Positions 221 to 9,299 of a stretch of 9,995 bases of DNA are shown here, piece by piece (position 1 is the first letter of the stretch; each line of letters opens with the position of its first letter). The translations under genes and the position numbers were made by a program. The notes beneath the pieces are model-generated. The model saw only the letters and a list, made by a program, of their open reading frames with translations, made no database searches and had not been told where the DNA came from. The DNA is from Desulfobacteraceae bacterium (lineage in GTDB: Bacteria > Desulfobacterota > DSM-4660 > Desulfatiglandales > Desulfatiglandaceae): assembly GCA_020349865.1 (NCBI GenBank), contig CP070700.1, positions 3,886,807 to 3,896,801 of the forward strand. The letters run 5' to 3'.

Positions 221-1405
221 TTATGCGGCTCTGCCATATTTGATCACTTCTTCCCCATGCCGCTCCCTGATGCGATCCAGGGCGTGGATCACATGAGATT
301 TTTTCTCTGCATCAGGCGATGAGTTATGAAAAAGCGATAGCTGACCACTTGAGTAAGAAAAGTCCCAAAACCAGACCTTTATAAACCGGACCCGCACCCG
401 GCGTTCGCAGGCCTTGAAAAACAATTTTTCCAGAGGACCGTAGAGATCAAAATCCCAGAAGCTGAGACCGGACAGCTTGATCTGCCGCTTGGTCTCCATC
501 TGGTCGGAATATCTGATCAAGAGGCCTGCCTTCCGGGGGAAAAGTGTCCTGCTCCGCAGCCGGTAGGAGCACTTTTCTACCAGTCTATAAAGGACTCCCA
601 GAAGCTTTACATCTTCATTTTCATCCTGTGGAAGCGTGATCTCTTCGCTCACCATGGGCTTTTGCGGGGCAGGGTAAACCGGGGTAAGATCAATGCCGAG
701 GGCCCGTTGATGGATCAGATAGGCCTGGCGGCCGAAGATAAGTTTGAGGTTCCCCATATCCAGAAGGGACAACTCCTGAACCCGGATAATGTTCAATTCC
801 TCTAAAAGGATTTTTCGGCGGAAACGCCCTATGCCGGGCACCACATTCACTTTTAAGGGGGCCATAAAAGGGGCCTCTCTGCCATGATCCACATCTAACA
901 CTCCTTCGGACGGCATGATTCGCGAGGCAATGTTAGAGACCATTTTGTTGCCTGCCACACCCACCGTTGCGGAGAGATAGAGGTGGCTTTTAATCTCCCG
1001 CCTGAGACGATATCCCGTGTCCTTGGCCCGCCCCCAAAGGCGTTCTGTGCCGGTGAGATCCAGATAGAGATGCCCTGGCCGGGAAGGTTCCCAGACAGGT
1101 GTATATCTTGCCACCACTCTGTTCATGGCCTCACATGCCCTTTCTGTTTGCCCTGGATTGGGAGGCAGGACAGTTAGCCCCGGACATAATTTCATGGCCT
1201 TGCCAATCGGCATGCCTTTAAAGACCCCCTCTTTTCGGGCCTCAGGGGAGACGGACAAGAGAAGTGCCCTCTCGGCTTGGGGCGGGGCCACAGCCACAGG
1301 CCGATCCCTGAGCTTTGGCTCGCACACCCGTGCCACAGCAATGGAAAAAGCCGATATGTGGAGATGGATAATATGACGGGACAAGAATTTACTCCAGATC
1401 CGCAT
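221..1405 (-). CDS. imuB: ImuB-like Y-family DNA polymerase homologue lacking catalytic residues
   Basis: This 394-residue protein has the DinB/ImuB layout: palm/fingers (about 11-180), helix-hairpin-helix near VVPGIGRFRRK (188-198), and little-finger region (about 250-350). The first catalytic motif, normally IIHVDMDAFF, reads IIHLHISAFS, so the metal-binding Asp is His16. The second, normally SIDEAYLD, reads RPGHLYLD, so the Asp-Glu pair is Gly111-His112. Loss of all three acidic ligands is the hallmark of ImuB, a non-catalytic scaffold that brings the DnaE2 polymerase to the beta clamp. A textbook clamp-binding motif, QLSLF, lies at 355-359 near the C-terminus. The protein is shorter than classical ImuB (about 450-500 residues) and slightly longer than E. 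coli DinB (351). It lies downstream of lexA and upstream of a dnaE start. The ATG at 1405 is the only in-frame start (TAA lies four codons upstream), and AAGG 7 nt before it comes from heptad element B. Y-family membership is certain; the ImuB role is inferred from residues and context. Confidence 0.9.
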   Translation of the reverse strand: MRIWSKFLSRHIIHLHISAFSIAVARVCEPKLRDRPVAVAPPQAERALLLSVSPEARKEGVFKGMPIGKAMKLCPGLTVLPPNPGQTERACEAMNRVVARYTPVWEPSRPGHLYLDLTGTERLWGRAKDTGYRLRREIKSHLYLSATVGVAGNKMVSNIASRIMPSEGVLDVDHGREAPFMAPLKVNVVPGIGRFRRKILLEELNIIRVQELSLLDMGNLKLIFGRQAYLIHQRALGIDLTPVYPAPQKPMVSEEITLPQDENEDVKLLGVLYRLVEKCSYRLRSRTLFPRKAGLLIRYSDQMETKRQIKLSGLSFWDFDLYGPLEKLFFKACERRVRVRFIKVWFWDFSYSSGQLSLFHNSSPDAEKKSHVIHALDRIRERHGEEVIKYGRAA

Positions 1406-1410
1406 TTTTT

Positions 1411-1514
1411 GGCCTTATGCCTTGGAATATAGGCGTAAGGCTCAGGGCGCAAGGCTTAAGGTATAAGCGTGGATGACGCTAAATTTTCTTGCTTTGAACC
1501 TTATGTCTTGAGCC
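1411..1514. repeat. Heptad-repeat element B
   Basis: Read on the plus strand it carries units ggcgtaa, ggctcag, ggcgcaa, ggcttaa, ggtataa, then a core (about 1468-1490) related to that of element A, then degenerate complementary units ending in cttgagcc. GGCTCA (1439-1444) pairs with TGAGCC (1509-1514). An extra pair of units (ccttatg, ccttgga) lies at the imuB side. The element spans the junction between the S23 gene and imuB, contributes the AAGG ribosome-binding site of imuB (complement of 1413-1416) and encodes the end of the read-through S23 frame. Confidence 0.75.
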
Positions 1515-1883
1515 TTTTTCTTTGTTGGTGTTTTTTGATCTGGCCTGAATGAGCTTTGCCAACATCCTTGAAATAGTCTGTCATTCATTTTTGACGTGAT
1601 CAAAATTTTCCCTTGGCAAATAACCGATCTCATAGGCTATGATAACTTGAGTAAGAAGTTCTGCAGAAGAACCTTTCGCTATGTAAAAGAATTTGATGGA
1701 CTGCCGATCTGTATCCAATTCATCACCTTCCGCAACGTTGCTTGGAATAGAAACGGCGGATCGACGAATCTGGTCTCTCAGGCCCCAGTCTTTAGCAAAT
1801 GTTCCTTTTCCGGTGAGCTTATAAAGAAACACAGCAAGTTCTTTAGCCCTTTGCCAAACTTTGAGTTCTTGAAAATTTCCCAT
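1479..1883 (-). pseudogene. Four-helix-bundle protein, S23/intervening-sequence family, interrupted by in-frame TGA
   Basis: The first 100 codons (1883 to 1584) encode a recognisable TIGR02436-type four-helix-bundle protein: start MGNFQELKVWQRAKEL, central SIPSNVAEG (45-53) and KGSSAELLTQ (70-79). The frame stops at TGA (1581-1583). Directly after it, in the same frame, the sequence continues with QTISRMLAKLIQARS, a very good match to the normal C-terminal helix of this family, and reaches TAG only at 1479-1481. The TGA sits where relatives often carry Cys, so a single base change in a Cys codon is the simplest explanation; stop read-through or recoding is possible but unsupported. Read through, the product would be 134 residues. 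The family is known from 23S rRNA intervening sequences and is related to the Avd accessory protein of diversity-generating retroelements; its cellular function is unclear. The gene sits between lexA and imuB with heptad repeats on both sides, suggesting insertion into an SOS operon. Confidence 0.8.
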
Positions 1884-1930
1884 TTTTTATCCTTTCTCCT
1901 TGTGCCTTGTGCCTTACGCCTTGAGCCTTA
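1884..1930. repeat. Heptad-repeat array C, supplying the S23 gene ribosome-binding site
   Basis: Plus-strand units at exact 7-nt steps: cctttct, ccttgtg, ccttgtg, ccttacg, ccttgag, cctta (1891-1930). On the coding strand these are AAGGNNN units that begin within the lexA stop codon (TAA followed by GGCTC) and end in AAGGAGA, AAGGATA, then the S23 start ATG. The AAGG to ATG spacing is 7 nt. Unlike elements A and B there is no inverted arm. Confidence 0.75.
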
Positions 1931-2533
1931 TTTATAATACCTCATAACCCCCACGACCTTTCCTTCAATGCGGAGATCCCCTTCCTTGACCCGGATGGAC
2001 TCCATTTCCGTGTGGGCCGGCCGGAGTTCCACGTGATCGTTCTTTTTGTAATATTTTTTGATAGTTGCTTCGTTGTTGATCAGGGCTACCACCGTTTCCC
2101 CGTTCTCTGCCGTGGGCTGCTTTCGTACCACCACAAAATCCCCTTCAACGATACCGTCTTCCTTCATGGAATCCCCGTTTACCTGGAGCACAAAGTGATC
2201 TCCGGTCCCTACCATGGATGGCGGAACCTCGATGGCGTTTACGTCTTCCACCGCCTCAATTGGTTTCCCTGCCGCCACCCTCCCTAAAAGCGGAAACTCG
2301 AATCGCCTGGTTTCCACAGGACTGATCACCTCAATGGCTCGCTTGCGGTTTTTTTGTCGGGGAAGGCGAATATAGCCCTTTCGCTCCAGGATCTTGAGAT
2401 AGGTAGTGACCGTGTTATAAGAACCAAATTTGAACTCGGCGCAGATCTCGTCAAAACTGGGAGGTCTTCCCCAATCCTCGATGTAACGCGAGATATACGC
2501 CAGAAAGATCTTTTGCTTGTCTGTTAGTTTCAT
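1928..2533 (-). CDS. lexA: LexA repressor
   Basis: The 201-residue protein has the standard LexA length. The N-terminal winged-helix DNA-binding domain (about 1-68) starts MKLTDKQKIFLAYISRYIED and has a recognition-helix region around SYNTVTTYLKILERKGYI (38-55). The self-cleavage site is Ala88-Gly89 in RVAAGKP. The C-terminal S24 peptidase domain has the catalytic Ser122 (NGDSMKEDG) and the general-base Lys159 (EATIKK). RecA-stimulated autocleavage would inactivate it and derepress the SOS regulon. It heads a same-strand cassette with the S23 gene, imuB and dnaE2, so it very probably represses its own operon. A GGGGG ribosome-binding site lies about 8 nt before the ATG. The recognition helix differs from the E. 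coli type, so the operator need not be the E. coli CTGT-N8-ACAG sequence. The stop codon is the first base triplet of heptad array C. Confidence 0.97.
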   Translation of the reverse strand: MKLTDKQKIFLAYISRYIEDWGRPPSFDEICAEFKFGSYNTVTTYLKILERKGYIRLPRQKNRKRAIEVISPVETRRFEFPLLGRVAAGKPIEAVEDVNAIEVPPSMVGTGDHFVLQVNGDSMKEDGIVEGDFVVVRKQPTAENGETVVALINNEATIKKYYKKNDHVELRPAHTEMESIRVKEGDLRIEGKVVGVMRYYK

Positions 2534-3017: not shown

Positions 3018-4202
3018 TCACCAGCGGTAGGTAAACTCTAGTCCGAATTGATAATACTTCGTCCCTCCTTCTCTATCCTGAAATTCTAAATTGGGAGACA
3101 CCCCCCAGACAGGGGTGATAAAGTAAGTTCCTCCGATTCCAAAAGTTTTGGCATCGATGCCACCTATTCTGTCGATAGTTTCTATTCTGTAGGCCTCGCT
3201 TCCAGAGGAGAAGTAAGTAAATATTTTATTCGCATCGTTGATGAACCATGTCACCTTAAAGAAAAAGGCAGTATCTGAAGAACTTCCACCTTCTTCGAAA
3301 TCTGTTTTCAAGACTGAGACTCTCGAAAGAAGGGAAAGAAATCCATATGGGTAGTACTCTCCTGCAACTGAAATTCCGTAAAGATCAACATCCCTGTAAT
3401 ATGATAAAATAGGACTGCCGTATATGACTAATGAGGGTGACGCTGTATAAGCAAGTTCGATCCTACCTGAAACAACCGGGAAAATTTCAGCTCTTGGAGC
3501 AAGTCCAACTTCAACAGAAATATCAAGTTCGTCTCTTAACTTTAATGAACCGCCACCTAAAACCCTGACCTCTTTTTCACCAAAGCGCTCGAGATAGTCA
3601 AATTGGCCGTAAAACTTGAATGGCTTATTGGGTATGTACTTAAGACCAGTATAGACATTGTGGCCATTCTCATCATTCTCATTTCTGTCCATATGCAAAA
3701 AACAGTAACCTGTATAGGATTGAAAATTATATATCTTTAAGGCTTTTTCTCTTATTTCGATTGCATCTTGGTCTCCTGGGTTAATTGTCAGAATCCTCTC
3801 TGAATAGTATATTGCTTCATTTTTTCGATCGGCCCATAGATTATATCTTGCCATTCGGATGAGTATTTCATTTTCATTTGGATATTGCTCAACTATCGTC
3901 TTCAATAGGTCTATAGCACTAGAATGATCGCCTTGCCAGGCGGTTAGGTCTGCCAAACCTGTTAGTGCCTCAATATTTTCCGGATACTTTGAGAGCGAGT
4001 CCTCGTACACATTACGAGCGGCATCATATTCACCCATCCAACTCAAAACCCTTGCTTTCCCGTTGAGTGCATCAATATTCTGCGGTGCATTCAAAAGTAT
4101 TGAGTTATATATTTCAAGCGCTGCTTCAAAGTCTTTTGCGATGGCCTTAATTCTTGCTTCTTTTAGTTTCAATTCAATACCTGAAGCATGGGATAGTGTC
4201 AC
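3018..4202 (-). CDS. TPR-containing YaiO-family outer-membrane beta-barrel protein
   Basis: The frame with a canonical start (GTG) gives 394 residues. Residues about 12-155 are tetratricopeptide repeats (for example ALEIYNSILLNAPQNIDALN and spacing of about 34 residues). Residues about 160-394 alternate aromatic/hydrophobic strands, typical of the YaiO barrel, with a late IDAKTFGIGGTYFITPVWG segment (350-367) and the terminal aromatic residue of an outer-membrane beta-signal (EFTYRW end). In E. coli, yaiO lies by the glycosyltransferase gene yaiP, and YaiO-type proteins are thought to act in polysaccharide export. Here it follows the GT2 gene by 47 nt. The true start is doubtful: codons 4203-4241 encode a signal-peptide-like stretch (see separate entry), so the mature protein probably begins after SHA at about residue 6. 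No terminator is seen downstream. Confidence 0.85.
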   Translation of the reverse strand: MTLSHASGIELKLKEARIKAIAKDFEAALEIYNSILLNAPQNIDALNGKARVLSWMGEYDAARNVYEDSLSKYPENIEALTGLADLTAWQGDHSSAIDLLKTIVEQYPNENEILIRMARYNLWADRKNEAIYYSERILTINPGDQDAIEIREKALKIYNFQSYTGYCFLHMDRNENDENGHNVYTGLKYIPNKPFKFYGQFDYLERFGEKEVRVLGGGSLKLRDELDISVEVGLAPRAEIFPVVSGRIELAYTASPSLVIYGSPILSYYRDVDLYGISVAGEYYPYGFLSLLSRVSVLKTDFEEGGSSSDTAFFFKVTWFINDANKIFTYFSSGSEAYRIETIDRIGGIDAKTFGIGGTYFITPVWGVSPNLEFQDREGGTKYYQFGLEFTYRW

Positions 4203-4241
4203 CGTGAGGATGATGCACGCAAGAAAAAACCCAGATTTTTT
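4203..4241 (-). other. Signal-peptide-like codons upstream of the yaiO-type GTG, without a start codon
   Basis: In frame with the barrel gene, TAA (4242-4244) is followed by codons for KKSGFFLACIILT and then the GTG read as V in VTLSHASG. The whole, KKSGFFLACIILTVTLSHAS, is a convincing signal peptide with a SHA-S cleavage site. No ATG, GTG or TTG occurs in these codons. The start of the frame abuts a run of eight A (complement of 4236-4243), so loss of an ATG by indel or base change, or a non-standard start, are options. Confidence 0.6.
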
Positions 4242-4249
4242 TTATTAAA

Positions 4250-5791
4250 TCAATTTGTCGCAACCTTATGGTCCCCCAGATTTTGTAATTTTTCACCAAA
4301 CCCTATTCTTTGGAATTTATTCCAGCGTTTTTTCCCCCGTATGAAATCGATTGTGCCCTTCATTCTCCACCACAAAGCAAGCTGTCTGTATCCGAAATTT
4401 TCCAAAACCGCAAACGCAAGAAGGAGTATTATTTCTCTGGTATTTCGGAAATAAATAAGAGATCTTGTCGAAGCATCGGCTTCAGCTGTTTTTGCTGGCC
4501 AGGCACCCACCACGATTGATGACACAGATATTAGAATCCCATATATTATGGAAACTAGAATGAACATTAGCAGGTAGGAGTAGTTGAGGCTGTGAAAAAT
4601 AAATAGGAAAGGTAATGTCACATAGCCAAAAAACTCGATTGGCCCTCCAAGAAGTTCAAAAAAAAGAAAATAGGGAAAGGTCAAAAGTCCTATTCGGCCA
4701 TAGTCTCTGTTGAATAACATCTTGCGATGATAAACCATGGTTTCTAAAAAGCCCCTTTGCCATCTGTTCCTTTGCTTCGAAAGACTATTTAAGTTTTCTG
4801 GAGCTTCGGTCCAGCAGAAAGGGTGGGGCAAGTAGGCAATCCTCTTATTCAATTTCTTGTCATGAATGTATCTCTGCATTCTCACTATTATCTCCATATC
4901 TTCACAGACCGTTTCAGCCTTGGAATTGGTATATTCTAGAGCAATTCTTGAGGTTAAACCTTTTGTGAGATAACCTCCGATTTTTTTTACAAAATCCTTC
5001 TGAAAGATTCCGAAGACCCCGGAAATTATAAAAATTGAATTCAGTCGTGAAAGGGCTGTTCTTCCGAGGGTAAAAGATCTTAGATACTCAACTATCTGGA
5101 ATCTAATCAGCCAGCAATTTGGCAATTTCGGTTGGACGACTTTTCCCCTTTTGATTACACTCCCATTGAGTATTGCGATCTGTCCTCCAATGGCCACTAT
5201 TCTTTCGTTGTTGAGTAATGTTCGAAAAGCCTGAAGTAGTGCAAGCTCATCAATAACCGAGTCCGCATCAATTGAAAGGAAATATGGGCAAAGGGATGCG
5301 TTAATGCCCGCATTTAGAGCGTCAGCTTTGCCGCCATTTTCCTTGTCCACGAGGACAAACCTAAGCACATGCTCAGGCAAGTCTTGTCTCGATTCATAGT
5401 AACCCAGTATTGGGGCGGTTGTTATGGTTTCAACATAGTTTATATCAACTCGTTTCAGGTTAAATGTCGCCTTAAGAACGTCAAGAGTGGTATCATTAGA
5501 ACCATCATTAACGATTACCAACTCGACTCTTGGGAATTTCAAATTAAGCATAGAATTCACTGATTCTACAATCGTCGATTCTTCATTGTAGGCCGGCACT
5601 ATTAATGATATTGGTGGAGTAAAAGGAGACATCATCACAATATCTAAGTCCTCAAAACCTCTGCTTATGACCCTACGCCTTACATCATAGAAAGACAAAA
5701 AAATGAAACAGAAGCTAATGGAATTATAAAAAACAAAATAGAAAAGAAAGGAATATTCTAAAAACCTGTATACATATTCTATAGAAAACAT
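4250..5791 (-). CDS. Family 2 glycosyltransferase, processive polysaccharide synthase type (PgaC/BcsA-like)
   Basis: This 513-residue inner-membrane enzyme likely polymerises a nucleotide-sugar donor into a polysaccharide. Motifs in order: N-terminal membrane segment (about 12-35); GT-A fold start LIVPAYNEE (63-71); VNDGS with Asp96; GGKADALNAG (153-162); DAD (175-177); CED with catalytic-base candidate Asp298; QRNRW (340-344). All residues expected for an active processive GT2 are present. Several C-terminal membrane segments follow (about 366-430 and 452-470), then a short basic tail. There is no PilZ domain, so direct c-di-GMP control as in BcsA is not indicated. The start ATG is 1 nt after the HEAT gene stop (TAA-T-ATG), indicating translational coupling, and the YaiO barrel follows. 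The substrate (GlcNAc, glucose or other) cannot be told from sequence. The spot G+C of this gene is low (23 of 60 bases at 4621-4680). Confidence 0.92.
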   Translation of the reverse strand: MFSIEYVYRFLEYSFLFYFVFYNSISFCFIFLSFYDVRRRVISRGFEDLDIVMMSPFTPPISLIVPAYNEESTIVESVNSMLNLKFPRVELVIVNDGSNDTTLDVLKATFNLKRVDINYVETITTAPILGYYESRQDLPEHVLRFVLVDKENGGKADALNAGINASLCPYFLSIDADSVIDELALLQAFRTLLNNERIVAIGGQIAILNGSVIKRGKVVQPKLPNCWLIRFQIVEYLRSFTLGRTALSRLNSIFIISGVFGIFQKDFVKKIGGYLTKGLTSRIALEYTNSKAETVCEDMEIIVRMQRYIHDKKLNKRIAYLPHPFCWTEAPENLNSLSKQRNRWQRGFLETMVYHRKMLFNRDYGRIGLLTFPYFLFFELLGGPIEFFGYVTLPFLFIFHSLNYSYLLMFILVSIIYGILISVSSIVVGAWPAKTAEADASTRSLIYFRNTREIILLLAFAVLENFGYRQLALWWRMKGTIDFIRGKKRWNKFQRIGFGEKLQNLGDHKVATN

Positions 5792-5792
5792 A

Positions 5793-8700
5793 TTACTCTG
5801 TTATACACTTTCTTGCTTGTCTTCTCACCTCAGGACAAGGATCTTTGAGGGCTATTCTTTTGAGGTCACTTGAGTAATTAGCACGAACAAGAGATAAAAC
5901 CCGAATGGCATGCAATCGCTTATCATTATCAGGTGACGATCTGAGATCTTTGAGCATATCAGTTTCAGGGCATAGCTCTTCAACAATGCTCTTAGCTAAT
6001 GGATCTTTAGTAACTGATGAGCCATAGGTGAGTCCTTTGCCAAATTTAATACCGTTCACACACGACCGCAGTTCTGGAAAATCATGTGTTCTTCTCATCA
6101 AAACATCAATGGACCTTTCCGGATCTAATTTCGCAAGACTCACAGCTGCCCTTATCCTCACAAACTCGTCAATATCTTTCAATGAAGCCTGAATGAGATC
6201 GAAGGATTCGTTTCCACCAATTGCAGTAATGCCATTAACGGCTGCAGCCCTGACACGCTCATTGGGATCGTAAAGGACTTTTCCCAGATGCTTGATCAGT
6301 TGCTTTTTCTTAAACTTGACAAGGGCACCCACTGCCGACGCTCGAACGTCCGGATCATCGTCCTCTAACAAGCCTATAAGGGATTTCATTGCCCCGCGTT
6401 TTCTGGTTTTGCCCATGAGCCAGGTCATGTCTATTTTCCTCATCTTCGATTCAGGCATACGTTTAATCAAGTCGCCCATTTTATCAGAATCTTCTATGAG
6501 CATTTTGGAAAGAGATGTCGTAACAGCTTCGCGAAACTCTCTATTGGATGTATCCAGAGCATGAAGTAATGCCTCAAGGGCTTCAGGCTGTTTATATTGT
6601 CCTAACAAATCAGTAGCCCTAATTCTGACCTCAAGTACCGGGTCCAACAACATGAGAGAGAGGGCCGATATGGCTTCATCATCCCGATCCATGGACGTTA
6701 GCAACTCCATGGCTTTCATCCTTACTTGAGGAGATGGGTCTCTTTTCATAACTGCAAGTACAAAAATGAACAGGTCTCCCGTGGCGATTATCTTCAACAT
6801 CTCCATCGCCTTCAACCTGATTTCCGGATCAAGCGCTTCTTTAATTGTCTCTTCGAGATTTTGTGCAAACGCTTTTTCGTTTTTTACAAGGAGCAGTTCA
6901 ACTTCAAGGCTGTTAGATTCTTGGGCACGCGATCTCATAGTTTCAACAATAGATTCAAATCGACAGTCATTTATTATTTCCTTCACTTCGGCCCTTATTT
7001 GGCGGATGTTTTTTCTGGAATGGACAGTATCAAGGACAATAGGATCATCAAACGAGGCGAGACTAAGGAGAGCGGCCGCTACGACTCGAACTGAATGATC
7101 ATCGAGCATTTCAAACAGAATCGTCTTATGTGTAGAATCCGAGGAAGCTCCAATAGCAAAAGCCAGGGCAGCCCTCACGTTATTATCCGGATCTCTGAAA
7201 AGCCCTTTGGCTTGCTCTAACAGCTTTTCATTAGGATCCAAAGCAATTCCAGTAAGGACAGCCATTCTTACAGTCTCAGATGGATCGCACAGCCCCTTAC
7301 CAAGGATTTCTTCATGTCCTTTACTTCGATGTAAAGAGAGTGCGTGATAGGATCTTGACCTCAGAAAGGGATTAGAGTCGGATGTGAATTTTATGATAAA
7401 ATCAGAAGCTTTATTGTCATTGATAACTGATGCAATATCAATTAAAATAGATAAGGCTTCTGCTTGTAGCCGCTCAGTGTCAATTAAGCCGAGGACTTCT
7501 TGAAAGCTGAGAGGCCTAATTTGCTTTATATATTCTATAATTTCAGACCTTATATCGTCCGAACCAAAACGCAAGAGGGTGATGGCATTTGAGAGGACGG
7601 TTTCATCCGCCACCTCCGAGAAGTACCTCAATGCCTCAAGTCTCACTCCCTCAGAGATATCTGAAAGAAGTTCAACAATCTTTTCCCTGTCAGAAGGAAT
7701 CCCTGTCTCTCGAATATACTTAAGTGCGGCAATTCTGACCCTGGGTGAGGGGTCTACCAGGAGGCTTTCAACTTTCTCTCGGTATTTTGTTATTCTTAGT
7801 CTGGAGAGGGCTGTAAGGGCCGATTCTCTTGCATAGGAGCTTGGATCGTTTAATATCCCCACAATATCATCCTCTACGTTTTTGGCTCCGAGAAGTCCAA
7901 GAGCTTCTACAGCTGATTTTCTTACCCAAAATTCTCTGTTTCTTAGGCAATCAATGAGAGAGGGAACTGCCTCCTTTGTTCCGAGTCTGCCCAGGCATTC
8001 AATAATCCTTGATTTTAGGGTCCATTCAGACGTGTCGGCAAGTAGCTCGAGTAAGGGCCCAGAGGCCTCCTTCACTCTTGCTTCGCCCAAAAGCCTCACG
8101 ATGCGTTTTTTCAAATGATCTTTAGAGCGAATGAGTTTATCGGTTATGCTCTCGATAACCCCTGCCTGGGCCACGAGAAAAAGTGTCTTTCTAAGGCTTG
8201 GTCTATACTTTTCTTGTCCGTACTCCTCAAGAATTTTTTCCACATAACCAATTTGTTCAAGGGCCATGGCAGAGCGCCGACGTACTTCTTTGTCCTCATC
8301 TTCTAACGCTACAAGAAGACTGGGAACCGCCCTATCGCCTAATTTTTCGAGTGCTTCTATTGCCCTGACTCTCACCCACCATTCCGGATCTTTGAGCACG
8401 TTAATCAGATAATCGATGATTGCCGGATGACCAATGGATCCCAGTGCCTGTGATATCCTAACTCTGACAAAAGGCACTGGGTCCGAAATAAGGATTTCGC
8501 AGAGTTTGGTAACGGCTTTTTCGTCACGTATTTTACCAAGGGCTCCAGCTGCTTTTGCTCTCACTTCTGGGCTTATGTCAGAGAGAGCTTCTATAAGAAG
8601 GTAAACGGAGCTTTTGGCCTCAAGCCATCCTAATATCTCTGCTGCCAACATTCTTCTGCTTTCGCTCCGGTAATTTCTTAGCTCATCTTTTAGTGGCTCT

Positions 8701-9299
8701 ATGGCTTCTTCACCGATATTGAATAAAACTTCAGCTATGCGGCTAGGCAGCCAAGTCTCGGGATAGCCAAGGGCTTCAATTAAGAAAGGAATGGCTCTTT
8801 TGTCTTTTATTCTTCCGAGAGCACGAAGGGAGGCTCCCCTTACATCTTCATCTTCATCTTTGACATTCTTAACAACCGATATTAGTTCAAGAACAGATCT
8901 GGGTGATCCAATTTGACCGAGTTTTTCAGCTGCAAAGGCCCTTTGTTTCCATGATTTGGAATCCTTCAAAAGACCGAGGTATCTGTCAGTAATCCCCGTT
9001 GCATCGTAGAGGTCTCGAAAGTGACTTCTCGGTTGCCCTTTAAGTTCTGCGAATCTGTCAAGAACTAACTCGATATGACTAACCTCGCCAATGCTCTTAA
9101 GCCGCTTTACGAAATCATTTGGAAAAGGCGCCCTGTCGTCTTTGAGTAGATCTGGGAGATCTTTGAATTTCTTTATCAACCTTTCTGTCTTTGTTGATTT
9201 TTTTGCCGTTATCGCTCTCAGCAGGATGAGTGCAAGAACAGAAAATATAGCAAGCGATAGGATGACGAGAAAGATTATAATCAGAAAATCTAATTTCAT
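5793..9299 (-). CDS. Giant membrane-anchored HEAT-repeat protein
   Basis: This 1168-residue protein has one hydrophobic segment at about 5-28 and then an almost uninterrupted solenoid of HEAT/PBS-lyase-like repeats to the C-terminus. The period is about 31 residues, with the pattern VRxxAxxALGxI followed by an aspartate/proline turn; clear examples start near 247, 278, 310 and 340. The length leaves room for roughly 30-36 repeats. No catalytic domain is visible. The basic residues just after the membrane segment (RAITAKKSTK) favour a cytoplasmic solenoid by the positive-inside rule, but a cleaved signal and periplasmic location is not excluded. HEAT solenoids are protein-binding scaffolds; being first in the operon and coupled to the glycosyltransferase, it may assemble or regulate the synthase. 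The ATG has no clear Shine-Dalgarno and overlaps the stop of an upstream open frame (ATGA), suggesting coupled translation. The next in-frame stop upstream excludes an earlier start. Confidence 0.9.
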   Translation of the reverse strand: MKLDFLIIIFLVILSLAIFSVLALILLRAITAKKSTKTERLIKKFKDLPDLLKDDRAPFPNDFVKRLKSIGEVSHIELVLDRFAELKGQPRSHFRDLYDATGITDRYLGLLKDSKSWKQRAFAAEKLGQIGSPRSVLELISVVKNVKDEDEDVRGASLRALGRIKDKRAIPFLIEALGYPETWLPSRIAEVLFNIGEEAIEPLKDELRNYRSESRRMLAAEILGWLEAKSSVYLLIEALSDISPEVRAKAAGALGKIRDEKAVTKLCEILISDPVPFVRVRISQALGSIGHPAIIDYLINVLKDPEWWVRVRAIEALEKLGDRAVPSLLVALEDEDKEVRRRSAMALEQIGYVEKILEEYGQEKYRPSLRKTLFLVAQAGVIESITDKLIRSKDHLKKRIVRLLGEARVKEASGPLLELLADTSEWTLKSRIIECLGRLGTKEAVPSLIDCLRNREFWVRKSAVEALGLLGAKNVEDDIVGILNDPSSYARESALTALSRLRITKYREKVESLLVDPSPRVRIAALKYIRETGIPSDREKIVELLSDISEGVRLEALRYFSEVADETVLSNAITLLRFGSDDIRSEIIEYIKQIRPLSFQEVLGLIDTERLQAEALSILIDIASVINDNKASDFIIKFTSDSNPFLRSRSYHALSLHRSKGHEEILGKGLCDPSETVRMAVLTGIALDPNEKLLEQAKGLFRDPDNNVRAALAFAIGASSDSTHKTILFEMLDDHSVRVVAAALLSLASFDDPIVLDTVHSRKNIRQIRAEVKEIINDCRFESIVETMRSRAQESNSLEVELLLVKNEKAFAQNLEETIKEALDPEIRLKAMEMLKIIATGDLFIFVLAVMKRDPSPQVRMKAMELLTSMDRDDEAISALSLMLLDPVLEVRIRATDLLGQYKQPEALEALLHALDTSNREFREAVTTSLSKMLIEDSDKMGDLIKRMPESKMRKIDMTWLMGKTRKRGAMKSLIGLLEDDDPDVRASAVGALVKFKKKQLIKHLGKVLYDPNERVRAAAVNGITAIGGNESFDLIQASLKDIDEFVRIRAAVSLAKLDPERSIDVLMRRTHDFPELRSCVNGIKFGKGLTYGSSVTKDPLAKSIVEELCPETDMLKDLRSSPDNDKRLHAIRVLSLVRANYSSDLKRIALKDPCPEVRRQARKCITE

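What the first reader, a model, noticed from the sequence alone, without database searches (positions are those of the whole stretch)
3018..9299. HEAT solenoid + processive GT2 + YaiO barrel: candidate trans-envelope polysaccharide system
Three adjacent same-strand genes, two of them coupled by a 1-nt gap, encode an inner-membrane polysaccharide synthase with complete motifs, a TPR/YaiO outer-membrane barrel and a giant anchored HEAT protein. GT2 and YaiO neighbours are known (E. coli yaiP/yaiO), but no PgaA, PgaB, BcsC or PilZ part is present. A HEAT protein as the first and largest component suggests a compact, little-described export architecture.
Basis: partly seen in the sequence, partly recalled or inferred. 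Interest (0 to 1): 0.7.

Follow-up and report, generated by a model that had tools for sequence, protein, structure and literature searches.

The report
HEAT-scaffolded polysaccharide synthase operon
A bacterial operon joins a sugar-polymer-making membrane enzyme and an outer-membrane pore to a giant cell-interior scaffold protein of a kind better known from animals and plants, and in many relatives that scaffold gene is paired with a signalling switch, hinting at an undescribed way of controlling slime production.

Summary
The three genes are real: a 1168-aa HEAT solenoid, a processive-type GT2 one nucleotide behind it, and a TPR plus YaiO-family barrel. A HEAT gene of this family lies next to the GT2 in 49 of 79 GTDB loci (4 more have a short HEAT gene). 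In 435 Myxococcota and Gemmatimonadota genomes, the 8 with the closest GT2 class (2 are seeds) all hold HEAT, against 1 of 77 with only a more distant GT2. The YaiO barrel is a frequent but replaceable partner. The proposed placement is not supported: HEAT has one N-terminal helix with the solenoid predicted in the cytoplasm (59 of 62), so it is not a trans-envelope part. Outside the window's own GT2 class a receiver-domain gene ends at the HEAT start in 26 loci, 18 allowing a 4-nt overlap. Best reading: a new variant of synthase-dependent exopolysaccharide machinery, in which a membrane-tethered cytosolic HEAT scaffold holds and regulates the synthase, perhaps in place of a c-di-GMP-binding subunit. 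Polymer, HEAT-GT2 contact and receiver binding are inferred, not shown.

The parts
5793..9299 (-). HEAT solenoid protein, 1168 aa; N-terminal membrane anchor, about 36 helix pairs
   Evidence: AF2 model m9bac442109e0 pLDDT 87.4; Foldseek tops are CAND1 and importins
9225..9281 (-). single transmembrane helix (residues 7-25) followed by a Lys/Arg-rich stretch: solenoid predicted cytoplasmic
   Evidence: hydropathy and charge
8250..8999 (-). most conserved part of the HEAT solenoid (residues 101-350); candidate partner interface
   Evidence: conservation of 64-row alignment A4: 85 columns at 90% or more in these 250 residues
4250..5791 (-). processive-type family-2 glycosyltransferase (inner-membrane synthase), 513 aa, starts 1 nt after the HEAT stop
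4760..4774 (-). QxxRW motif (QRNRW, residues 340-344)
3018..4202 (-). TPR plus YaiO-family outer-membrane barrel, as read from GTG
   Evidence: TIGR04390 48 bits, cut-off 32; model mc9cc154db934 pLDDT 91
3738..4196 (-). TPR domain of the YaiO-like protein (helices 3-155)
3024..3725 (-). 14-stranded beta-barrel (strands 160-393)
   Evidence: DSSP of the model; FadL, OmpG and CymA class barrels
4203..4260 (-). signal-peptide coding region, split between two frames, holding an A8 (4236-4243) and a T6 (4224-4229) run
   Evidence: three-frame translation; sequence; relatives' N-termini

Best explanation
The locus encodes a synthase-dependent exopolysaccharide machine with an unusual cytosolic part. 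GT2 polymerises and extrudes a sugar chain through the inner membrane (inferred from family and motifs). The TPR domain of the YaiO-like protein receives the chain in the periplasm and its 14-strand barrel releases it (inferred from architecture). The HEAT protein is tethered beside the synthase by one N-terminal helix, with its long solenoid in the cytoplasm (consistent topology prediction, no experiment). It works as a scaffold and allosteric regulator of the synthase (inferred). In other lineages a receiver protein, in part of them with a histidine kinase nearby, is the likely signal input to the HEAT protein (inferred from REC-HEAT gene junctions). In the window's own GT2 class that input is missing or encoded elsewhere.
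For: HEAT adjacent to GT2 in 49 of 79 loci, upstream in 30 and downstream in 19; 4 have a short HEAT gene, 8 lack it, 18 are undetermined at contig edges. All 15 loci of GT2 score 800 bits or more, the window's class, have HEAT upstream. Genome surveys: HEAT in 5 of 235 Myxococcota and 5 of 200 Gemmatimonadota genomes; in 8 of these 10 it lies within 2 kb of a GT2 hit, in the other two near a contig end. GT2 over 550 bits: HEAT in 8 of 8 genomes (2 are seeds, G003 and G005); GT2 under 480 bits only: 1 of 77. HEAT and GT2 distance matrices correlate at r=0.907, reached by 0 of 1000 permutations, 32 loci. Side towards the solenoid more positive in 59 of 62 proteins, the other three being ties; SPOR precedes the membrane helix in P0014 and P0043. 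Receiver ORF at the HEAT start in 26 loci, 18 allowing a start that overlaps by 4 nt; beside full-length-type HEAT the phospho-Asp is kept in 21 of 22 and the Lys in 22 of 22. YaiO model: BcsC first, PelB tenth.
Against: No experiment and no predicted HEAT-GT2 complex. The window has no receiver, kinase or modifying enzyme next to HEAT, and none of the 15 loci of its class has a receiver hit within 6 kb. The profiles were built from relatives of the window's proteins and the 550-bit line was set after seeing the gap (559 against 479), so the classes are partly defined by kinship to it. Correlated trees can reflect co-inheritance without contact. 8 loci with enough flanking sequence lack HEAT, 3 of them (L035, L039, L043) while keeping a receiver near the GT2. 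No barrel-spanning YaiO match in 5 of 8 carrier genomes, though a diverged barrel could be missed.
Confidence: 0.6

Rival explanations
1. The HEAT protein is mainly a positioning device: it anchors the synthase at one place in the cell (for example at the septum or pole) and does not regulate catalysis.
For: Some relatives carry a periplasmic SPOR domain ahead of the membrane helix: PF05036 is listed for 7 of the 93 proteins and was confirmed by scan in P0014, P0043 and the L065 protein. SPOR domains are known, by recall, to bind denuded peptidoglycan at division sites.
Against: 86 of the 93 listed proteins, and the window's, have no SPOR entry, though P0006 has a similar unscored N-terminal region. 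The receiver partner in 26 loci points to signalling. Conservation peaks in the solenoid, not the anchor.
Confidence: 0.2
2. One reading: the HEAT solenoid spans or lines the envelope and takes part in export between inner and outer membrane.
For: N-terminal anchor and size are real; gene order next to an outer-membrane barrel.
Against: Positive-inside rule in 59 of 62; in SPOR variants the SPOR domain is on the other side of the helix; a receiver-domain partner is expected to be cytosolic; fold matches listed are cytosolic or nuclear HEAT scaffolds and designed repeat proteins.
Confidence: 0.06
3. HEAT is an assembly or stability factor (chaperone-like) for the multi-spanning synthase, needed only while the complex is built.
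For: Immediate 5' position with tight coupling in the window and relatives (gaps of 1 nt in L001, L003, L004, L010-L013 and L064); large binding solenoid.
Against: The gene is downstream of GT2 in 19 of 49 loci; receiver pairing is not explained.
Confidence: 0.12
4. Chance or lineage-specific neighbours with no shared function.
For: None beyond the small size of the window.
Against: Linkage over seven phyla by the tree's labels and in both gene orders; HEAT in 8 of 8 genomes with the close GT2 class against 1 of 77 with the distant one only.
Confidence: 0.02

Closest known systems
Synthase-dependent exopolysaccharide systems (cellulose Bcs, PNAG Pga, alginate, Pel)
   Same: GT2-type inner-membrane synthase; TPR domain coupled to an outer-membrane barrel (fold matches to BcsC and PelB); deacetylase-like and glycosidase-like proteins in some related loci
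   Different: No PilZ, PgaD, BcsB or other c-di-GMP part was recognised in the window; a giant cytosolic HEAT protein is the constant partner instead; barrel model has 14 strands (16 in PgaA and BcsC by recall); GT2 is far below the PgaC cut-off (120 against 422)
E. coli yaiO-yaiX-yaiP
   Same: YaiO-family barrel in the neighbourhood of a GT2
   Different: E. coli YaiO is 257 aa, so it lacks room for the TPR half, and gives no significant BLASTP match (best E 0.73); profile comparison gives 2% probability, E 0.022 over 102 columns; YaiP matches GT2 at 29% over 214 positions, E 3e-12; no HEAT gene is annotated in the 7 kb fetched
Eukaryotic giant HEAT scaffolds (CAND1, importins, PP2A PR65)
   Same: long continuous HEAT solenoid; top Foldseek hits
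   Different: Query TM-scores are low (0.12-0.22 in the list), identity 10-16% for the natural proteins listed; similarity of architecture only, no claim of descent
Bacterial HEAT proteins of phycobilisome metabolism (NblB, CpcE/F)
   Same: HEAT repeats; among the best NCBIfam hits
   Different: All far below the family cut-offs (for example 159 against 300); model lengths of 200-260 positions; no membrane helix or GT2 partner (recalled)

Membership tests
Synthase-dependent EPS system (four typical features, PMC7112194, passage seen) | inner-membrane polysaccharide synthase | tested here: met
   GT2 domains above Pfam cut-offs, membrane segments and QRNRW; processivity itself not tested
Synthase-dependent EPS system (four typical features, PMC7112194, passage seen) | regulatory domain or co-polymerase that binds c-di-GMP | tested here: inconclusive
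   no PilZ or GGDEF in the window proteins scanned; HEAT may stand in; HD_5 in 5 and GGDEF in 1 of 110 neighbours of related loci
Synthase-dependent EPS system (four typical features, PMC7112194, passage seen) | periplasmic polysaccharide-modifying enzymes | tested here: not met
   none among the window's ORFs; present beside the GT2 in some related loci; sequence beyond the window not seen
Synthase-dependent EPS system (four typical features, PMC7112194, passage seen) | periplasmic TPR domain coupled to an outer-membrane pore | tested here: met
EPS operon by the working minimum of PMC7112194 | a polysaccharide synthase plus at least one modification or transport locus | tested here: met
   GT2 plus TPR-barrel; but the paper applied it to five known systems found by their own HMMs
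YaiO family (TIGR04390) | barrel domain above the curated cut-off | tested here: met
   48 against 32 bits; Pfam PF19413 17.4 against 23.9 is below its cut-off
PgaC/IcaA PNAG synthase (TIGR03937) | score above the equivalog cut-off | tested here: not met
   120.4 against 422.3
Cellulose synthase BcsA (TIGR03030) | score above the cut-off; PilZ domain | tested here: not met
   29.7 against 699.1; no PilZ found
NblB / CpcE / PRK13800 HEAT families | score above the equivalog cut-off | tested here: not met
   159/300, 118/330, 125/1196

The most novel reading that the evidence does not exclude
A distinct class of synthase-dependent exopolysaccharide system in which the usual c-di-GMP-binding subunit is replaced by a membrane-anchored, importin-like HEAT solenoid that reads the phosphorylation state of a dedicated receiver (which shares a D-x-F/L-W motif) and passes it to the synthase: direct phosphorelay gating of polysaccharide synthesis.
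Probability: 0.35. Interest if true: 0.8.

Novelty: new variant of a known kind. Interest (0 to 1): 0.6.

Why it matters
Known synthase-dependent polysaccharide systems are typically described with a c-di-GMP-binding regulatory part (PMC7112194, passage). A conserved synthase module whose constant partner is a giant cytosolic HEAT scaffold, paired in many loci with a receiver, would be a different control logic for matrix production. It gives a function hypothesis for proteins that sources name only 'HEAT repeat protein', and it is testable in cultured Polyangium.

Tried and rejected
Viral contigs: 18 pattern matches, no relative of the HEAT protein. Whole-genome search of the window's own genome: none held. 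Rfam at gathering threshold and tRNA search: nothing. Promoter-like matches were at chance level (19 found, 17.0 expected) and terminator-like ones below it (6 found, 10.5 expected). Greedy gene calling of the loci failed in high-GC genomes and was redone with homology-weighted calling; the second version still mis-called some starts, so counts of HEAT, receiver and YaiO were taken from profile hits on ORFs. The first YaiO iteration used the wrong column as score and was corrected. The trans-envelope HEAT model was rejected on topology. The idea that this YaiO lacks a signal peptide was rejected. PDB sequence search found no near structure for GT2 (partial GT2-domain matches only) and none for cluster C6. 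Literature: no paper holds 'HEAT repeat' + 'glycosyltransferase' + 'YaiO', nor the combinations; the hits were seen as search listings only (one paper, PMC7112194, was then opened), and each paper uses 'HEAT repeat' once or twice. PMC7112194 was read as passages only; its main text has no occurrence of HEAT or YaiO. Absence from print is claimed only for these searches of open-licence papers.
Full report
WHAT IS THERE. The window holds three minus-strand genes as described: HEAT 9299-5793, GT2 5791-4250, TPR/YaiO 4202-3018. HEAT and GT2 are separated by 1 nt; GT2 and the GTG of YaiO by 47 nt. Pfam: 13 HEAT_2 stretches; GT2; TPRs. NCBIfam: TIGR04390 YaiO 48 bits against a cut-off of 32; PgaC/IcaA 120 against 422. 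GT2 keeps NDGS 95-98, DAD 175-177, CED 296-298 and QRNRW 340-344 (the meaning of these motifs is recalled). Downstream on the same strand lie LexA, a four-helix-bundle protein and a Y-family polymerase. The 696 bases upstream of HEAT hold no listed ORF of 80 aa except one that overlaps the HEAT start on the other strand.

THE YAIO START. The GTG start cuts the signal peptide. The 86%-identical relative P0218 begins with a hydrophobic leader whose last residues match the window in frame. In the window the leader's first part reads in one frame and the rest in another, with an A8 and a T6 run in that stretch. This is either an indel (assembly or real) or slippage; the data do not decide. A 384-aa copy, 100% identical, is listed on a contig of 4,985,782 bases with '-' as source, the tool's mark for a protein that the window encodes (P0217), so the window probably comes from that contig.

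HEAT AND GT2 ARE ONE MODULE. Profiles were built from the window's proteins plus 16 of the 120 listed GT2 hits (A1) and 15 of the 93 HEAT hits (A2), chosen by me. A GT2-alignment scan of GTDB representatives gave 79 loci (121 confirmed, best 80 kept). A HEAT-family gene of 90 bits or more lies next to the GT2 in 49 of 79 (30 upstream, 19 downstream), a short HEAT gene in 4 (Acidobacteriota), none in 8 with at least 4.5 kb on both sides, and 18 are undetermined at contig ends. In two of the 49 (L002, L009) the HEAT gene is split in two ORFs. By GT2 score: 15 of 15 at 800 bits or more; 6 of 9 at 650-800 (3 undetermined); 28 of 41 at 550-650 (5 none, 8 undetermined; L019 and L064, whose GT2 ORFs are broken or shortened, fall here); 0 of 14 below 500 for full-length-type HEAT (4 short, 3 none, 7 undetermined). 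The tree's labels place full-HEAT carriers in Nitrospirota, Thermodesulfobacteriota, Myxococcota, Gemmatimonadota, Krumholzibacteriota, Latescibacterota and Acidobacteriota. The window's GT2 groups with Nitrospirota sequences, with a Desulfobacterales row inside the group. On the tree HEAT-upstream needs 3 changes where shuffles average 19.2 (0 of 500 as low); the tool warns of some long branches.

GENOME SURVEYS. These score only the top few first-look candidates per genome and may overlap the 79 loci. Myxococcota, 235 genomes: HEAT at E<=1e-40 in 5, all five on the contig of a GT2 hit and within 2 kb of it, match to match. Gemmatimonadota, 200 genomes: HEAT in 5; three within 1 kb of a GT2 hit. 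Of the other two, G543 has HEAT at one contig's start and a GT2 hit at another contig's start, and G503 has HEAT about 1.5 kb from a contig end and no GT2 hit at E<=1e-100. GT2 hits over 550 bits: 4 and 4 genomes, all 8 with HEAT; G003 and G005 among them are the seeds, so 6 of 6 without seeds. GT2 hits under 480 bits only: 33 and 44 genomes, 1 with HEAT (G243). The line was drawn after seeing that no hit lies between 479 and 559 bits. Nitrospirota: 1 of 198 at E<=1e-60, the seed genome itself, so the module is rare and patchy. In six carrier genomes the HEAT family had one match in four and several in two: G004's two lie in one place, G002 has further matches on other contigs. Distance matrices of HEAT and GT2 over 32 loci correlate at r=0.907 (0 of 1000 permutations as high); the test does not remove shared species history.

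TOPOLOGY. Of 64 HEAT proteins, 62 show a hydrophobic helix by a simple hydropathy rule; in 59 of the 62 the side towards the solenoid is the more positive, and the other three (P0028, P0037, L059) are ties. P0047, counted among the 59, was scored on a later hydrophobic stretch and says nothing. In P0014 and P0043 a SPOR domain lies before the helix; in P0043 a further hydrophobic stretch, signal-peptide-like, precedes SPOR. That fits SPOR in the periplasm and the solenoid in the cytoplasm. This is prediction, not experiment. The solenoid model (pLDDT 87) matches CAND1, RanBP5, Kap121 and other HEAT scaffolds, with query TM-scores of about 0.2 or less. Conservation peaks at residues 101-350.

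RECEIVER COUPLING. A receiver hit lies within 6 kb of the GT2 in 0 of 15, 8 of 9, 26 of 41 and 5 of 14 loci by class, a kinase hit in 22 of 41 and in none of the other classes. In 26 loci a receiver-domain ORF ends at the HEAT start: 22 with full-length-type HEAT, 4 with short HEAT. In 20 of the 26 the ORF is 160 aa or shorter; the other six are longer as called (L022 and L023, 351 aa, of the cluster of L017's REC-HD protein; L028, L029, L041, L055, whose starts may be over-extended). Possible HEAT starts overlap the receiver stop by 4 nt in 18 of 26; the rest lie between -1 and +33. The pairing holds whether GT2 is upstream or downstream. The 22 keep the phospho-Asp (21), acidic partner (21), Thr/Ser (21) and Lys (22); of the 4 beside short HEAT, 3 lack the Asp, 3 the Thr/Ser and all 4 the Lys. 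A D-x-F/L-W motif is in 20 of 22 partners, 0 of 4, and 5 of 33 other receiver domains in the same loci; those 5 lie in GT2 loci without a detected HEAT gene (two of them undetermined at contig ends), so the motif tracks the GT2 system rather than HEAT alone. I scanned 110 of the 166 neighbours within two genes of the core, leaving out mainly TPR-barrel and long ones: Response_reg is the commonest family (23), then HATPase_c (10); PilZ is not among the 25 families shown of 85. Against the reading: no receiver near any of the 15 loci in the window's class, and L035, L039 and L043 keep a receiver near GT2 without HEAT; in L043 the next gene is a TPR protein.

POLYSACCHARIDE CONTEXT. Related loci carry proteins with a CBM30 match and a weak glycoside-hydrolase match (cluster C8), a polysaccharide-deacetylase match (C7 in L006), and in Bacteroidota, Cloacimonadota and WOR-3 loci where no HEAT gene was seen a large protein with a deacetylase domain (C5). 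This supports an exported, modified polymer. The sugar is unknown.

KNOWN OR NEW. PMC7112194 (passages only) lists synthase, c-di-GMP regulatory or co-polymerase subunit, periplasmic modifiers and TPR-coupled pore as the typical parts, and names five known polymers. The window meets two, lacks one, and one is open. E. coli YaiO/YaiP share the families but little more. I therefore call it a new variant of a known kind.

Noticed in passing
window 221-2533, minus strand: LexA (2533-1928), a 23S_rRNA_IVP four-helix-bundle protein (1883-1581) and a Y-family (IMS) polymerase (1405-221) in a row: an SOS-like group. A CTTAC...GTAAG arrangement at 2671-2708, upstream of lexA, seen by eye, could be an operator.
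   Followed up: no
L045:2512-4911: One 799-aa ORF reads as GT2 followed by a YaiO barrel (TIGR04390 593-795, 32.9 against cut-off 32), a fusion or a lost stop, downstream of a HEAT ORF.
   Followed up: partly
protein P0131: HEAT C-terminus (about 137 aa) reads straight into the GT2 in one ORF on a 253,684-base contig; real fusion or lost stop not determined.
   Followed up: no
L066-L068, L073: Acidobacteriota variant: degenerate receiver, short (about 400 aa) HEAT protein and a more distant GT2; a gene of the cluster of L067's GGDEF protein also lies beside it in L066-L068.
   Followed up: partly
L043:13435-15746: Receiver with the D-x-F-W motif followed by a TPR protein where other loci have HEAT: possible swap of one solenoid for another.
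   Followed up: partly
L046, L057, L058, L060 (Polyangium): Cultured carriers with a shortened (about 670 aa) HEAT gene that follows the GT2 (ORFs overlap by 35-50 nt as called); useful for experiments.
   Followed up: no
L031, L044, L059: GT2 loci with a multi-spanning membrane protein (cluster C18) and, in L059, a protein with a DUF3485 match; my guess is a link to exosortase-associated polysaccharide clusters.
   Followed up: no
L001, L002, L004; L013: Conserved opposite-strand neighbours include a multihaem cytochrome-like protein (L001:2743-4245, Cytochrome_C7; same cluster in L002 and L004); in L013 a Band_7/SPFH protein lies directly behind GT2.
   Followed up: no
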